A stretch of 63,937 bases of DNA from an uncultured Treponema sp. (GTDB lineage: Bacteria; Spirochaetota; Spirochaetia; Treponematales; Treponemataceae): positions 1 to 63,937 of the forward strand of contig CAMVHR010000013.1 in assembly GCA_947167345.1 (NCBI GenBank). Reading direction: 5' to 3'. The notes beneath the pieces are model-generated. The model saw only the letters and a list, made by a program, of their open reading frames with translations. It did no database searches and was not told the origin of the DNA. A program made the translations under genes and the position numbers. Positions 1 to 32,467 of the stretch are shown here, piece by piece (within the stretch, counting starts at the first letter, position 1; the number at the start of each line of letters is the position of its first letter).

Positions 1-55
1 TATGATATGATATGATATGATATGATATGATATGATATGATATGATATGATATGA
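1..55. repeat. Pentanucleotide microsatellite, TATGA x11
   Basis: Eleven uninterrupted copies of TATGA begin at the window edge, so the true copy number may be higher. Read on the minus strand (TCATA) the repeat has no stop in any frame, whereas on the plus strand every frame contains TGA. A five-base unit shifts frame with each copy gained or lost, as in phase-variable contingency loci. Confidence 0.95.
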
Positions 56-2311: not shown

Positions 2312-2369
2312 TTATAACCGAAACTTTTTGCAAAAGCAATAAAAGTTTTGGTTATAACTGAAACTTTTT
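2312..2369 (-). promoter_or_regulatory. Inverted-repeat operator/promoter of the ATPase gene
   Basis: TTATAACCGAAACTTTT (2312-2328) is mirrored by AAAAGTTTTGGTTATAA (2341-2357) with one mismatch, and a third half-site, TTATAACTGAAACTTTT, overlaps the second arm at 2352-2368. On the minus strand the -10 TATAAT lies in the first arm and a -35 TTGCTT (2334-2339) lies between the arms with 17-base spacing. Binding here would block or control transcription of the ATPase gene. Confidence 0.6.
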
Positions 2370-2427
2370 AACAAAACTGCAATTTGTACCGAATCATTTT
2401 GCAGAAGCTGCAATAAATTTTTGCGGT

Positions 2428-2525
2428 CGTATTTGACACGCGTACCGTTCGTATTTGACATGCGCATCGTCCGTATTTGTCATGCGTACCGTTCGTATTT
2501 GTCATGCGTACCGTCCGCATTTGTT
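2428..2525. repeat. 22-bp tandem repeat, about 4.4 copies
   Basis: Units start at 2428, 2450, 2472 and 2494, with a partial fifth at 2516. The unit is close to CGTATTTGTCATGCGTACCG plus two bases, with single-base variants between copies. The repeat lies in the 337-base gap between the ATPase gene and the ACT-domain gene. No coding role is apparent. Confidence 0.9.
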
Positions 2526-2601
2526 TTCAAACACTGCCGCAATTGCATTAAACTAGCTAGGACTCTGCGTCACAATTTCTGGCAAGAAAACAGCCCGTTA
2601 C

Positions 2602-2630
2602 TTGTAAATAAATCCATTATGCGGTACTAT
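2602..2630 (+). promoter_or_regulatory. Promoter of the ACT-domain gene
   Basis: TTGTAA (2602-2607), a 17-base spacer and TACTAT (2625-2630) end nine bases before the ATG at 2640. There is no Shine-Dalgarno site, so the mRNA is probably leaderless or nearly so. Confidence 0.55.
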
Positions 2631-2639
2631 TCCTAGAAT

Positions 2640-2909
2640 ATGAAAGCAATTATTACAGTAGTAGGAAGCGACAAAGTAGGTATTATTGCAAAGGTATCTG
2701 CTTACCTTGCAGAAAAGTCAATTAATATAGTAGACATTACACAGACAATTTTGAGCGGTAATTTCGTAATGATGATGATGGTAGACTTTGAAAAGTCTTC
2801 AACCGACATTGACGGAGCACGCAAGGATTTGACAGAAACCTGCCGCAACATGGGTGTGGAAATCAACCTCATGAGCGAAAAGGTATTCAGTGAAATGCAT
2901 CGCATATAA
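2640..2909 (+). CDS. ACT domain-containing protein (UPF0237 family)
   Basis: This 89-residue protein is a single ACT domain: it starts MKAIITVVGSDKVGIIAKVS, followed by the INIVDITQTIL segment and a MMMMVDF strand, as in the small UPF0237/ACT_6 proteins. ACT domains bind amino acids or other small ligands and usually regulate an enzyme. In many bacteria this protein is encoded beside a DUF711/UPF0210 partner, which is absent here, so its target is unknown. The last 23 bases overlap the 3' end of the convergent aat gene. The start is fixed by the beta-strand start and by the promoter immediately upstream. Confidence 0.85.
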   Translation: MKAIITVVGSDKVGIIAKVSAYLAEKSINIVDITQTILSGNFVMMMMVDFEKSSTDIDGARKDLTETCRNMGVEINLMSEKVFSEMHRI

Positions 2910-3606
2910 TGCGATTGGCTTTTTCTAAAAACCGTTCTTTCAAGTCATGATCGAGAGGACGGTAAAGATATTCTGATTCAAGACGAAGAAAAGCATCCCT
3001 GCTTATATTCGTTGCCCCGTAACGGGCAATGTTATCAGTGTAAATCTGACTATCAATAAGCTTTCCTCCACATTCAGCAAATGCCTTCGCAAACAAGACA
3101 AACGCACTCTTTGAACTGTCCGGCAGTTTCGTAAACATTGATTCACCGCAGAAAACACTGCCAATCAGGACTCCATAAAATCCTCCGACAAGTTTGTTTT
3201 CATGCCATACTTCAAAACTATGGGCAAATCCTTCTTCATGAAACTCTTTGTAAGCTTTTATCATTTTATTACCAATCCATGTACCCCTCTGCCCTGCCCT
3301 CTTCATTACACGGCATTCTTCCATTACAGTTTCAAAACAGGTATCCATGGTATATGTATACGGAGAATGCTTTAAGAAGCGGTCAAGTCTTTTAGGAACA
3401 TGAAGGTTTTCAATTCTAAGGCAAAAACGCGGATCAGGAGAATACCACACGACAGGCTCTCCCTCATCCTCATCAAACCAAGGAAACACCCCCTGCATAT
3501 ATGCTGAATATAAAAGCTGAATGTTTAGTTCCCGCGTAACAAGACAAGCTCCATTATATTCTGCAATGGGATTTGGAAATTTCAGAATGTCTAACGTATT
3601 AATCAT
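2887..3606 (-). CDS. aat: Leucyl/phenylalanyl-tRNA-protein transferase
   Basis: Aat moves Leu or Phe from charged tRNA to the N-terminus of proteins that begin with Arg or Lys, turning them into ClpS substrates. The 239-residue product has the family's GVFPWFDEDEGEPVVWYSPDPR segment split over residues 31-52 or so, and the GGFYGVLIGSVFCGESMF core with the conserved Gly-Gly and Glu-Ser-Met. I chose the ATG at 3606 because it begins [13 protein letters not shown] and overlaps the clpA stop by eight bases; a longer frame is open upstream but would run well into clpA. With clpS and clpA it completes an N-degron operon. Confidence 0.93.
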   Translation of the reverse strand: MINTLDILKFPNPIAEYNGACLVTRELNIQLLYSAYMQGVFPWFDEDEGEPVVWYSPDPRFCLRIENLHVPKRLDRFLKHSPYTYTMDTCFETVMEECRVMKRAGQRGTWIGNKMIKAYKEFHEEGFAHSFEVWHENKLVGGFYGVLIGSVFCGESMFTKLPDSSKSAFVLFAKAFAECGGKLIDSQIYTDNIARYGATNISRDAFLRLESEYLYRPLDHDLKERFLEKANRIICDAFH

Positions 3607-5806
3607 AAGAAAAAGAAAGTCCCTTATTATCAGAACCAATGCTCACAATTCCGCCTTTGCTCAGTTTTCCAAATAAAAGCTCATCCACAAGAGGCGATGC
3701 AATAAGCTCTTCTACAGTGCGAGCTATGTTCCGTGCCCCAAATTCCCTGCTGTAGCCCTTGTCTGCAATGAATGACACAGCTTTTTCGGAAACTTCCAGT
3801 TTCACATTTTTTTTGGCAAGACGTTCTGCAAGTTTAGAAACATTCTTGCGAACAATATCGTTAGTTATGTCAGAAGAAAGATGAAAGAATGGAATTACAG
3901 CATCAAGCCTGTTACGGAATTCTGGCGAAAACTCTTTGTCCACAGCATTCTTTAATGTAGCCCTGTCATCAGAAGAAGAAACAGTACCAGAACCAAACCC
4001 CATGCTTCCTTTTTCCATGTCACGCGCACCTGCATTGCTGGTCATGATGATAATGCAGTTGCGAAAATCAGTCTTGCGTCCCTGATTGTCAGTAAGCATG
4101 CCGTAATCCATAACTTGCAGAAGAATGTTGTATATATCCTGATGAGCTTTCTCTATCTCATCAAACAGAATTATCGAATGAGGCTCTTTACGAACAGAAT
4201 CAGTGAGAATGCCACCATTTTCATAACCTACGTATCCAGGAGCAGAACCAATCAAACGGCTTACAGTATACTTTTCCTGATACTCGCTCATGTCAAAGCG
4301 CAAGAGCTTTTCACCAAGGGTATCAGCAAGCACTTTTGTAAGCTCTGTTTTTCCGACTCCTGTAGGTCCTACAAAAAGAAATGCGGCTTCAGGCTTTTCC
4401 ATGTTGCGGAATCCTGCGCGGGCTTTTTTTACGGCAAGGCTTACTGCTCGCACAGCTTCATCCTGACCGAATATCTGAGACTTCAATGTCTGTTCTATAT
4501 TTTTCAGATTATCCTTTTCATTTACAGTAATGTTTTCAAGTGGCACACGTGCCATTCTTGCAGTTATGCTCCGGATTACACTTTCAGAAACGGAAGGTTT
4601 TGCAGAAGTTTTTCTTGCATGAATGCGACAATAAGCACCTGCCTCATCCATAATGTCAATAGCCTTGTCTGGCAGTCGGCGATCCGTAATGTACTGCATG
4701 GACAAATCAACTGCACATTCCAGAGATGAAAAAGGATACCGCACCCTGTGGTACTCTTCATATTTTGACTTTAATCCAGTCAAAATCTTTATGCAGTCAT
4801 TGCGTGACGGTTCCAGAATGTCTATCTTCTGAAATCTTCTGGCAAGAGCCCTATCTTTTTCAAATATGCGGGTGTATTCTTCAAAGGTTGTAGAACCTAT
4901 GCATCTGATTTTTCCGCTAGTAAGCAGTGGCTTTAATATATTTGCGGCATCAAGGGCACCATTACCGACAGCACCAGCTCCTACTATAGTATGAATTTCA
5001 TCAATAAAAAGAATCGCCTTTTCTTTCTTAAGAAGTTCATCTGTAATCTTTTTGAGTCGCTCTTCAAAATCACCCCGATACTTTGTTCCTGCAAGCAGAC
5101 TGCCCATATCAAGGGAATACACTTCGTAGCCGAGCAAAAGTTCCGGCACTTTTTTGTTCACAATCAGCGAAGCAAGACCTTCTGTAATGGCAGTCTTTCC
5201 GACTCCGGCATCACCTACATGCAGGGGATTATTCTTTGTGCGGCGGCACAGAACCTGAATAGTACGTTCAATTTCTTCTTCGCGGCCAACAAGTACATCA
5301 AGCTCAGCTGACTTTGCTTTTTGAGTAAGATTTGTAGTATATTTGTCCAAAACTGACGGATTAGAAGAAACGTCTTGTTTTTCGCTGTCATTTATGCTAA
5401 TGGCTTCAAGAAGGACAAGGCGGTTTATGCCGTTTTTCTGCAGGATGAATGAGCAGTAATTGTTTTCTTCATCTATCATGCTTACAATCACGTCAGACAT
5501 TGTTACTACAGACTTGTCGGCATTCAGGCACTGTTGCCCCGCACGTTCCATTACAGAATTAAAGCCGAAAGAAGGTTCTGTATCTCCAGAATCACTAAGA
5601 GGTACGTTGCCCGAAATGTACGATTCAAGGTCATAGGATATTCCGCTTATATTTGCACCGCAATTCAAGAGCAAGTCCTTAACCTGATCATATTCAAGAG
5701 ACACAAGCAGAAGATGTTCCGGTGTCAAGAATTCGTGATGGCAGGCTTCTGCCTTTTTATATGCGGCATTAATGATTTTATTAAGAAGAGAATCTATTTC
5801 TATCAT
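3599..5806 (-). CDS. clpA: ATP-dependent Clp protease ATP-binding subunit ClpA
   Basis: ClpA is the AAA+ unfoldase that feeds substrates, including ClpS-bound N-degrons, to ClpP. The 735-residue protein has a Clp N-domain (about 1-145), a first AAA module with GDAGVGKTA near residue 197 and [11 protein letters not shown] near 268, and a second with GPTGVGKTE near 482 and [10 protein letters not shown] near 548. There is no long middle coiled-coil domain, which separates it from ClpB and ClpC. It lies 12 bases downstream of clpS and overlaps aat. No clpP is in the window. Length is close to E. coli ClpA (758). Confidence 0.95.
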
Positions 5807-29665: not shown

Positions 29666-32467
29666 TTACTCCTGTCCGTCCAAACGGAACATATTCATAA
29701 GGTCGCTGTCGCTCATCTCGGTTATCCAATTTTCACCGGAGTCGGCGGAGATGACGTTTTGCGCAAGCTCGATTTTGCTCTTTATGAGCTCGTCGATTTT
29801 TTCTTCGATTGTTCCACGCGATACAAATTTGTGAACCATGACGTTTTTTGTCTGGCCGATTCTGAACGCGCGGTCGGTGGCCTGATTTTCCACTGCGGGA
29901 TTCCACCAGCGGTCAAAGTGAATTACGTGGTTTGCGTTGGTAAGGTTCAATCCTGTTCCGCCTGCTTTTACCGAAATGACCATGTAGGGAATATAAGTGT
30001 CGCTCTGGAATTCTTCCACCATTTTGTTACGCTTGGAAATCGGGGTTCCGCCGTGAAGGACAAAGCCCCTTATGCCGAATACGCCGGAAAGAAAATCATC
30101 GAGGGCTGGGCATATTTCCTTGAACTGGGTAAAGACAAGCACACGCTCGCGCTTTTCGTAAATCGTCTGGCAGATGTCTTTTAGCATCTCAAACTTTCCG
30201 CTGTCTTTTTCTGCAAATCCGTCTGCTCCGTTAAACTGGTCGGGGTGATTGCAAATCTGCTTGAGCTTTAAAAGGGATGCAAGAACAAGTCCGCGACGTT
30301 TCATTGGGTCATCATCGTCTTTTGCTTTTTCCAAAAGTTTTGCAAGGTCGTCCACATATTTTTTGTAAAGGACCCGCTGTTTTTTGGAAAGGGTCACATA
30401 GTCGGTCATCTCCATTTTTTCGGGGAGGTCAGAGATGATTGACTTGTCCGTTTTTAGGCGACGCAGCATGAAGGGTGAAATCATTGCCTTGAGCTTTGAG
30501 TAGCCTGAAGGATTTTCTTTTAGCGATGATGCGAATCGTTTGAATTCAGTTGATGTTCCCAAGAGCCCCTTGTTCAAGAAATCGTAGAGCGACCAAAGGT
30601 TTGTCAGATCGTTTTCTATTGGAGTTCCAGTGAGGGCGATGCGGTTTTTGGCTTTGAGTGACTTTATGCTTTTTGTTTGTTTTGATGAAGGATTTTTGAT
30701 TGCCTGGGCTTCGTCCAGAATTACAAGGTCCCAATCTGTTTGCTGCAAATCTTCCATGCGGCTTACCATGCTGTAGGTGGTGATTGAAAGGAATGGAAAG
30801 TTGCCATTCTGAATTGCGCCACTGTCACTCTGAATTGCGCCACTGTCATTCTGAACTTGTTTCAGAATCAGAGATGCCGAATCAAGTTCGGCATGACGGG
30901 CTACGTTTTCGGCATGACGGGTTGCATTTTCGGCATGACGGACTGCGTTTTCGGGCTGGCAGTTTTTCTTTTCTGCATTACGAGAGGCTGATGGGTGCAA
31001 AATCTGGAGTGGCAAAAGAGGAGCGAACTTTTTACATTCATTCTGCCAGTTGCCCAAAAGGGATGCGGGAACTACAAGGAGAATTTTTGAATCTGGAGCA
31101 TCCTGCCTTATACTTTCCAAAAATGCGAGGACTTGAACGGTCTTTCCCAAGCCCATGTCATCGGCAAGACAGGCACCAAAATTGCAGGCCGTCATCTTGG
31201 AAAGCCATTCGTAGCCCTTTGACTGATATGGACGCAAGGTAGCCTTAAAGCTTGAAGGTAGTTTCATGGCTTTTTTGCCTGTGCTTGAAACAGAACGCAA
31301 GTCACGGAGAAGCTCTGAAATCCATGTGGCGTTGGAGATGGCGTTTATGTCGATTTCGTCTTTTGAATCGGAATCAGCATTGTCAGAGTTAAGGCTCATG
31401 CGCAGGGCTTCCACCATGCTTATGTCACCCTGATATTTTTCCATCTCTTTTAAAAGCAAGTTCAGCCGCTCGTGGTCAACTTCAACCCACTTGCCTTTTA
31501 TGAGCGAAAGTCCTTCGTCCATGGCAAGCATCTTTTTGATTTCTGCCTTGGTGAGTTTTTCACCGTCAACTTCAAGGTAGCCTTCCATTCCAAGAATTGA
31601 GTCCAGCCCCAGAAGTGATTTTTTCTTTGTGAGCGAGACTGAGACCTTTGCCTTTTGCCGAGATTTTTTCCACCAGTCGGGAATGCGGCAGACGATTCCG
31701 CTTTCTTCTATTTTTGGAATGTCGCGCAAAATTTGCCATGCCTCATTTGTAGTAAGCCGCAGGGGATGGAACATTTCTCCGCTTGCAGTAAATTCCCCGA
31801 TTAGCTTTGAAACCTCGGCCGCACGGTTAAGGCAGGAAAGAAGCTCCAGAATTTTATCCCGGTCATTTTTGTATTCGGTTAGGGCATATTTTAAGGGAGC
31901 GTGCTTTATGCTTCCCTTTTCGTTTTTTGTGGAATAGGTTGCAAGAAATGAAAATGGATAAGCATCATCATTTTTGTTTTCCACAAGATGAAAGAAAATC
32001 CTCTCCGCAACTTTTAGCCGCTCATCTTTTTCCGCAAGATAAAGGGCAACTGTTCCCGAATAATTTTTAATCTCGTGGGAAAAGCAGCCGTTCAGTTTTG
32101 CCCAAAGAATCTGAATCCATTCTGAGTTTACGTTTTCAGATCCGGGAGCAAAGGGGAGTGATGAAAGAAGATTTTCGGTTAAATCATCAGTCAGCGAAAC
32201 TTCTGTATTTTCCCTGCTAAGCTCAAGGCCTTCAGTTCTGGAAAGCTCTGTTAAAAATGAATCTGCCACCTGCCAGAGAAAAAGTCCCGCATCGTCAACG
32301 CTTGCCACAGGTCGCACGTCAAAGCCAAGATTGTACAGGGCCATGATTGGCTCGTCTTTAAAAGCACCGCTGTAAGTTGCATCGTCTACTGCAAAGAGGG
32401 ATGACAAAAATCTAAAGCGAAGTGGACCTGCCACATTTTGTTTTTTATTTGTATTAGTATTTCTCAT
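29666..32467 (-). CDS. SNF2-family DEAD/DEAH helicase
   Basis: The 933-residue protein has an N-terminal region typical of bacterial SNF2 partners of SWIM proteins, then motif I LADDMGLGKTVQVLAFLES (about 439), Ia ILLVVPASLLGNW, II VILDEAQAIKN (586), III RIALTGTPIEN, and the C-lobe with VLHGGTPISKRNKM, VMVISVKAGGTGLNLT-like V and DRAFRIGQTKNVMVHKFV (VI). Between Ia and the ITTYSM strand it carries about 50 extra residues (502-557) encoded by a palindromic repeat element, in frame. The helicase fold should tolerate it as a surface loop. SNF2 proteins translocate on double-stranded DNA; the bacterial role is unclear. Confidence 0.9.
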   Translation of the reverse strand: MRNTNTNKKQNVAGPLRFRFLSSLFAVDDATYSGAFKDEPIMALYNLGFDVRPVASVDDAGLFLWQVADSFLTELSRTEGLELSRENTEVSLTDDLTENLLSSLPFAPGSENVNSEWIQILWAKLNGCFSHEIKNYSGTVALYLAEKDERLKVAERIFFHLVENKNDDAYPFSFLATYSTKNEKGSIKHAPLKYALTEYKNDRDKILELLSCLNRAAEVSKLIGEFTASGEMFHPLRLTTNEAWQILRDIPKIEESGIVCRIPDWWKKSRQKAKVSVSLTKKKSLLGLDSILGMEGYLEVDGEKLTKAEIKKMLAMDEGLSLIKGKWVEVDHERLNLLLKEMEKYQGDISMVEALRMSLNSDNADSDSKDEIDINAISNATWISELLRDLRSVSSTGKKAMKLPSSFKATLRPYQSKGYEWLSKMTACNFGACLADDMGLGKTVQVLAFLESIRQDAPDSKILLVVPASLLGNWQNECKKFAPLLPLQILHPSASRNAEKKNCQPENAVRHAENATRHAENVARHAELDSASLILKQVQNDSGAIQSDSGAIQNGNFPFLSITTYSMVSRMEDLQQTDWDLVILDEAQAIKNPSSKQTKSIKSLKAKNRIALTGTPIENDLTNLWSLYDFLNKGLLGTSTEFKRFASSLKENPSGYSKLKAMISPFMLRRLKTDKSIISDLPEKMEMTDYVTLSKKQRVLYKKYVDDLAKLLEKAKDDDDPMKRRGLVLASLLKLKQICNHPDQFNGADGFAEKDSGKFEMLKDICQTIYEKRERVLVFTQFKEICPALDDFLSGVFGIRGFVLHGGTPISKRNKMVEEFQSDTYIPYMVISVKAGGTGLNLTNANHVIHFDRWWNPAVENQATDRAFRIGQTKNVMVHKFVSRGTIEEKIDELIKSKIELAQNVISADSGENWITEMSDSDLMNMFRLDGQE
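30806..30956. repeat. Palindromic repeat element inside the SNF2 gene, with 21-bp tandem flanks
   Basis: Two hairpins lie side by side: ATTCTGAA/TTTCAGAAT at 30848-30868 and ATGCCGAA/TTCGGCAT at 30874-30894. On the left, TCTGAA recurs at 30808, 30829 and 30850; on the right, TTCGG recurs at 30887, 30908, 30929 and 30950. Both series have a 21-base period, so each copy adds seven codons. The element is translated as repeated NAxRHAE-like units, then LDSASLILKQVQND, then SGAIQ units. Confidence 0.85.

What the first reader, a model, noticed from the sequence alone, without database searches (positions are those of the whole stretch)
30806..30956. Palindromic repeat inserted in frame in the SNF2 helicase, expanded in 21-bp steps on both sides
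Two hairpins (30848-30868 and 30874-30894) are flanked by 21-base periodic copies of their outer arms (TCTGAA at 30808/30829/30850; TTCGG at 30887/30908/30929/30950). It encodes about 50 extra residues, with LDSASLILKQVQND, between helicase motifs Ia and II. The multiple-of-three period keeps the frame. This is a translated REP-like element, and the stepwise expansion may be an active process.
Basis: partly seen in the sequence, partly recalled or inferred. Interest (0 to 1): 0.63.

Follow-up and report, generated by a model that had tools for sequence, protein, structure and literature searches.

The report
Stuttering palindrome inside a helicase gene
A short, widespread DNA palindrome has inserted into a helicase gene of a Treponema bacterium and has grown on one side of each hairpin in steps of about 21 bases; the same one-sided growth, ending at the hairpin loop, turns up in many bacterial phyla and appears not to have been described.

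Summary
Window 30845-30897 holds two REP hairpins, tags outward and tails facing. They match the 27-nt consensus YGTCATnCYGAACTTGWTTCRGnATCT built from 248 units of the genus (Treponema) and fit the published CGTC REP superfamily. The element sits in frame in an SNF2 helicase, where the solved homologue 1z63 has a short linker. Sister genomes carry the same dimer with fewer 21-bp copies; the most divergent close orthologue has one unit and no array; a distant one has none.

The stronger result is general. Such units repeatedly carry, on the tag side only, tandem copies of a block made of roughly 6-12 nt of local flank plus the 5' half-hairpin. The period is 16-26, mode 21, and the block ends at the 5' edge of the loop. 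A scan finds this in many phyla. Outside long ORFs 33% of periods are multiples of three; inside, 20 of 20 are. So a frame-blind, polar DNA process makes the copies and selection keeps in-frame ones. No Y1/RAYT transposase is detectable in several genomes with arrays. The enzymology is inferred. Element known; polar half-unit array apparently new.

The parts
29666..32467 (-). host gene: SNF2-family helicase, 933 aa (DUF3670 + SNF2-rel_dom + Helicase_C)
30844..30871 (+). REP unit A: tag TGTC, stem ATTCTGAA/TTCAGAAT (8 bp), loop CTTGT, tail CAG
30871..30898 (-). REP unit B: tag CGTC, stem ATGCCGAA/TTCGGCAT (8 bp), loop CTTGA, tail CTC; tails of A and B face each other, so the tags face outward
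30802..30843 (+). tag-side array of unit A: two 21-bp copies (half-unit TGYCAYTCTGAA + 9 nt filler TTGCGCCAC)
   Evidence: copy number differs in G058 and G028
30899..30970 (-). tag-side array of unit B: 21-bp copies (GTCATGCC-GAA + filler) ending in a degenerate outermost copy
   Evidence: G058 lacks two of these copies
30792..30990 (-). approximate insert region of the helicase, encoding NAVRHAENATRHAENVARHAELDSASLILKQVQNDSGAIQSDSGAIQNGNF and its edges

Best explanation
The segment is an in-frame heterodimer of two CGTC-type REP units (tags outward) that landed in a linker of an SNF2 helicase and has since been enlarged by polar tandem duplication. Shown: each unit is a tagged 8-bp hairpin; blocks of about 21 bp (local flank + tag + 5' arm) are repeated only on the tag side; the repeat ends at the 5' edge of the hairpin loop; the phenomenon recurs in unrelated flanks and phyla; inside long ORFs only periods of 18 or 21 are seen. 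Inferred: when the unit extrudes as a hairpin in single-stranded DNA, the tagged strand is nicked, or synthesis stops, at GAA(C)^TTG, and the 3' end re-engages about two helical turns upstream, so that the flank and 5' half are copied again. The enzyme is unknown; a detectable Y1/RAYT transposase is not required. The encoded heptads (RHAENAT, SGAIQSD) are a tolerated by-product in a linker rather than a selected peptide (inferred). The confidence given is for this whole statement; membership of the CGTC REP family alone is about 0.9, the polar half-unit array as a real pattern about 0.85, the nick-and-re-prime step about 0.35.
For: Sharp 27-nt consensus from 248 units. Genus scan for half-unit + unit: 179 matches in 38 of 200 genomes, reversed control 0, and 92 of the 140 listed spacings fall in 18-24 against 32 expected if uniform, p about 1e-27. 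The mirror pattern on the tail side gives 8 matches in 4 genomes, most of them complete unit repeats. In units collected without reference to arrays: tag side 24 vs tail side 0 at 70% lag identity; 17 vs 2 when selected on flank and tag only. Filler is local: 57% in-register identity to the upstream flank vs about 30% after shuffling. End point: register identity mostly 0.87 or more to +11, then 0.43, 0.34, 0.24, the same in and outside the genus. Frame filter 20/20 vs 64/192, Fisher p 2e-9. Orthologue series: none, one unit, dimer + few copies, dimer + more copies. G003, G028, G098 and G134 have array matches but no PF01797 hit.
Against: No event has been caught within a species; all variation is between species. 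Many arrays were found with patterns that fix the half-unit up to its C, so the end point is partly ascertained; in the unascertained set (n=17, some chance matches) the drop is blurrier, 0.76 at +10, 0.47 at +11 and +12, 0.24 at +13. Own genome has no array that meets the exact pattern, and G003 and G015 have only two such matches each, so array growth is uneven among REP-bearing genomes. No candidate enzyme.
Confidence: 0.6

Rival explanations
1. Ordinary minisatellite slippage: a chance 21-bp repeat next to a REP varies in copy number, with no role for the hairpin.
For: Blocks are local tandem duplications and vary in copy number, as any VNTR does. Once two copies exist, slippage alone can add more.
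Against: Needs a coincidence of the same period, same side and same end point in unrelated flanks and in many phyla; the tail side shows almost none.
Confidence: 0.2
2. Serial insertion: new partial REP copies are inserted next to existing ones from elsewhere in the genome.
For: Arm sequences are more alike between neighbouring copies than fillers (0.89 in the free arm positions vs 0.57), and some fillers share no similarity.
Against: Filler matches the local upstream flank far above shuffled pairs; many recent arrays have identical fillers. The arm excess is partly a search bias.
Confidence: 0.1
3. Selection for the encoded peptide: the heptads are a functional segment of the helicase and were duplicated for that reason.
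For: Several genes carry heptad or hexad arrays in frame (PriA, Dus, WYL, radical-SAM-like).
Against: Most arrays (192 of 215) lie outside long ORFs and use all periods; the peptide depends on the strand and frame in which the REP is read; the host proteins are unrelated.
Confidence: 0.06
4. Half-unit arrays are operator-like binding sites (GTCAnnCnGAAC) maintained by a DNA-binding protein, and the hairpin is secondary.
For: Conserved arm; period near two helical turns.
Against: Arrays occur deep inside genes; number and location vary between species. Promoter context was not tested.
Confidence: 0.06

Closest known systems
CGTC-tagged REP superfamily, 8-bp stem / 5-nt loop type (Di Nocera et al. 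2013, PMC3733652; includes Rickettsia RPE-4/RPE-6)
   Same: CGTC or TGTC tag, stem starting with AT, 8-bp stem, 5-nt loop, short tail, dimers with tags outward and often heterodimers, intragenic copies often in DNA repair and replication genes, no dedicated transposase; Spirochaetes already listed as hosts
   Different: Tag-side arrays of half-units with a period near 21 were not found in the sections read or in the term search (no 'slippage'; 'tandem' only for complete units or other repeats); tails here are mostly CTn, not the CCA consensus
REPINs and GTAG REPs mobilised by RAYT (PMC3116915, PMC6006769)
   Same: Tagged hairpins, paired, dispersed; in that system the tag acts as a 5' guide for a single-strand nuclease
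   Different: Tag is CGTC; no RAYT detectable in several rich genomes; the tandem arrays described there consist of complete REPs with spacings of 72 and 112 bp
Rickettsia palindromic elements inserted in frame in proteins (RPE)
   Same: Palindromic DNA translated within unrelated proteins without destroying the gene
   Different: Polar step-wise growth with half-unit copies not reported in the passages read

Membership tests
CGTC REP superfamily | Unpaired CGTC (or TGTC/CCTC) tag at one end | tested here: met
   TGTC and CGTC in the two units; genus consensus YGTC, G/T/C at 96-97%
CGTC REP superfamily | Stem 8-9 bp beginning with AT; loop 4-5 nt | tested here: met
   8-bp stems starting AT, 5-nt loops CTTGT and CTTGA
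CGTC REP superfamily | Short unpaired tail, mostly consensus CCA | tested here: inconclusive
   Tails CAG and CTC here, genus CTn; the orthologue G054 has CCA
CGTC REP superfamily | Dispersed, repeated in the genome, head-to-head dimers predominant | tested here: met
   9 exact cores in own genome, up to 213 in congeners, frequent inverted neighbours
CGTC REP superfamily | No associated transposase | tested here: met
   PF01797 not found in G003, G015, G028, G098, G134; other transposase families not searched
GTAG REP / RAYT system | GTAG tag and a RAYT gene in the genome | tested here: not met
   Tag is CGTC/TGTC; own genome has only a 35-residue fragment match below cut-off
Rickettsia palindromic element (RPE-1) | Sequence similarity to RPE-1 | not tested
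   No RPE-1 sequence was fetched

The most novel reading that the evidence does not exclude
CGTC REPs across bacteria are substrates of an unrecognised, strand-specific activity that nicks the hairpin at the 5' edge of its loop and duplicates about two helical turns of DNA on the tag side, steadily feeding short tandem repeats, and in genes new heptad-repeat segments, into genomes.
Probability: 0.3. Interest if true: 0.82.

Novelty: new variant of a known kind. Interest (0 to 1): 0.6.

Why it matters
CGTC REPs are widely shared among bacteria, and how they spread is an open question, since no transposase is known for them. A polar scar with a fixed end point at the hairpin loop is a physical trace of what is done to them: it points to the tagged strand and to the loop. 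It also shows how a non-coding process writes new in-frame repeat segments into apparently intact protein genes, with a frame filter that can be measured.

Tried and rejected
RAYT/Y1 transposase as the mobiliser: rejected as a requirement, since several array-bearing genomes lack PF01797. Tail-side arrays: searched with a mirror pattern and locally, essentially absent. Simple insertion of half-units from elsewhere: disfavoured by local filler. Literature: sequence strings of the core and its peptides gave no paper; REP papers searched for tandem or half-unit arrays mention only complete repeats. No structure prediction was run: the solved homologue 1z63 already places the insert. A nested second repeat found in G058 was looked for in the window and is absent there. 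Whether the loop is also a general insertion point (31 interrupted units, most diverging right after GAAC) was noted but not quantified. SbcCD as the loop-cutting enzyme was considered from general knowledge; a paper search was not followed far enough to test it.

Full report
Check. The window holds two hairpins at 30848-30868 and 30874-30894, flanked by 21-bp tandem repeats on both sides, in frame in a 933-aa SNF2 helicase gene read on the minus strand. As single-stranded DNA the 55-nt core folds into precisely these two hairpins, far below shuffled energies. Against the solved SNF2/Rad54-family homologue 1z63 the protein aligns up to residue 496 and again from 561, corresponding to chain residues 123 and 132, so the element fills a short linker between two aligned parts of the helicase core.

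What it is. The core TGTC-ATTCTGAA-CTTGT-TTCAGAAT-CAG recurs through the genus. From 248 units of own and sister genomes the consensus is YGTCATnCYGAACTTGWTTCRGnATCT, with base composition falling to background on both sides. Counts per genome range from none to more than 200, against 0-3 per strand for the pattern read backwards. Tag, stem length, loop length and dimer orientation fit the CGTC REP superfamily of Di Nocera et al. 2013 (PMC3733652). That paper lists Spirochaetes among its hosts, reports intragenic copies with many in DNA repair and replication genes, and states that no dedicated transposase accompanies the family.

Comparison with sister genomes. Of 98 genomes searched only a few have this gene. 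G058 (95% identical) and G028 (94%) have the same dimer, each with a single 21-bp copy on the side of unit A, where own has two. On the side of unit B own has two more full copies than G058. G054, the most divergent close orthologue (90%), has one unit and no array: CCCGTCAGGCCGAACTTAATCCGGCATCCA. G031 (59%) and the more distant G060 have none. The simplest reading is one unit first, then a dimer, then copies added on the outside; loss in G054 is not excluded. In G058 unit B has a further in-frame 21-bp insertion in its loop, right after GAAC.

A general process. On inspection many units in G058 and G028, coding or not, carried extra copies of the 5' half-unit GTCAnnCnGAAC at spacings near 21 on the tag side. 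A gapped pattern allowing any spacing from 12 to 42 gave 179 matches in 38 of 200 congeneric genomes with none for the reversed control; of 140 listed spacings 92 lie in 18-24, mode 21, where 32 would be expected if uniform. The mirror pattern on the tail side gave 8 matches in 4 genomes, most of them complete units in tandem. Several records are named strains or species rather than metagenome bins (Treponema bryantii NK4A124, Pseudoalteromonas sp. CIP111854, Sphingorhabdus profundilacus IMCC26285), so binning is not the cause.

Nature of the copies. The filler between half-unit and unit matches the sequence just upstream of the half-unit in register (57% vs about 30% for shuffled pairs). The copied block is therefore local flank plus the 5' part of the unit. 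Among 67 arrays with similar fillers, register identity is high to unit position +11, the first loop base, then falls to 0.43, 0.34 and background, alike in the genus and outside it. Because many of these were found with patterns that fix the half-unit to that base, I repeated the test on 225 units collected without reference to arrays, choosing arrays by flank and tag only: 17 tag-side against 2 tail-side, with identity falling between +10 and +13. The end point near the 5' edge of the loop stands, to within one or two bases.

Frame. Of 215 arrays, those in ORFs of at least 200 aa have periods of 18 or 21 in 20 of 20 cases; outside ORFs 64 of 192 are multiples of three, as chance predicts (Fisher p 2e-9). 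Several of the 20 are orthologues; counting about 14 independent arrays still gives (1/3)^14. The host genes include PriA, dihydrouridine synthase, a WYL regulator, a HAD hydrolase, an FAD enzyme, a weakly radical-SAM-like protein and a protein with a ResIII helicase domain. A DUF4405-type protein shows different heptad numbers in several genomes. The copies are thus made by a frame-blind DNA process and selection removes those that break the frame.

Mechanism. Polarity cannot come from a symmetric hairpin alone, since both strands can extrude one; it must come from the tag, the loop sequence or the tail. The end point suggests a nick or stop at the 5' edge of the loop on the tagged strand, followed by re-engagement about two helical turns upstream. 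That step is inference. A RAYT-type nuclease with the tag as guide (as described for GTAG REPs) would give polarity, but PF01797 is undetectable in G003, G028, G098 and G134, which have array matches. Single-duplication arrays show little microhomology beyond the period, though numbers are small (20 arrays).

Novelty. The element is a new member of a known family in a new gene. The tag-side half-unit array was not found in the papers searched; subscription literature could not be searched. I class it as a new variant of a known kind.

Noticed in passing
window 2428-2524: Tandem array of a 22-bp unit (CGTATTTGTCATGCGTACCGTC, 4.4 copies) in an intergenic region between an ATPase-like ORF and a small ORF; the GTCATGC part resembles the REP half-unit but no complete unit is adjacent.
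   Followed up: partly
window 1-55: Eleven perfect copies of TATGA at the very start of the contig, possibly the reason the assembly breaks there.
   Followed up: no
L017 (G058), L142, and L108/L135/L145/L150/L154/L159/L166: Units whose loop is replaced by longer, often palindromic inserts (CTGAGCCTGTCGAAG; a 40-nt insert ACTGCTACGCCACA...), nearly always starting right after GAAC, the same position where the tandem blocks end.
   Followed up: partly
L002 (own C49), L054, L060: A second gene in own genome carries REP units inside its ORF; related ORFs in other genomes carry REP units at about the same place in different arrangements.
   Followed up: no
L309 (Sulfurimonas MAG), ORF 2343-4322 minus strand: PriA primosomal helicase with a hexad array (RHSEQL repeated) ahead of a REP unit, an independent case of in-frame growth with period 18.
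   Followed up: partly
G127 against G015: G127 has 59 exact tag-side array matches and 213 unit cores, the richest genome seen; G015 has 82 cores and only two matches, both with period 30. The contrast could reveal the responsible gene.
   Followed up: no
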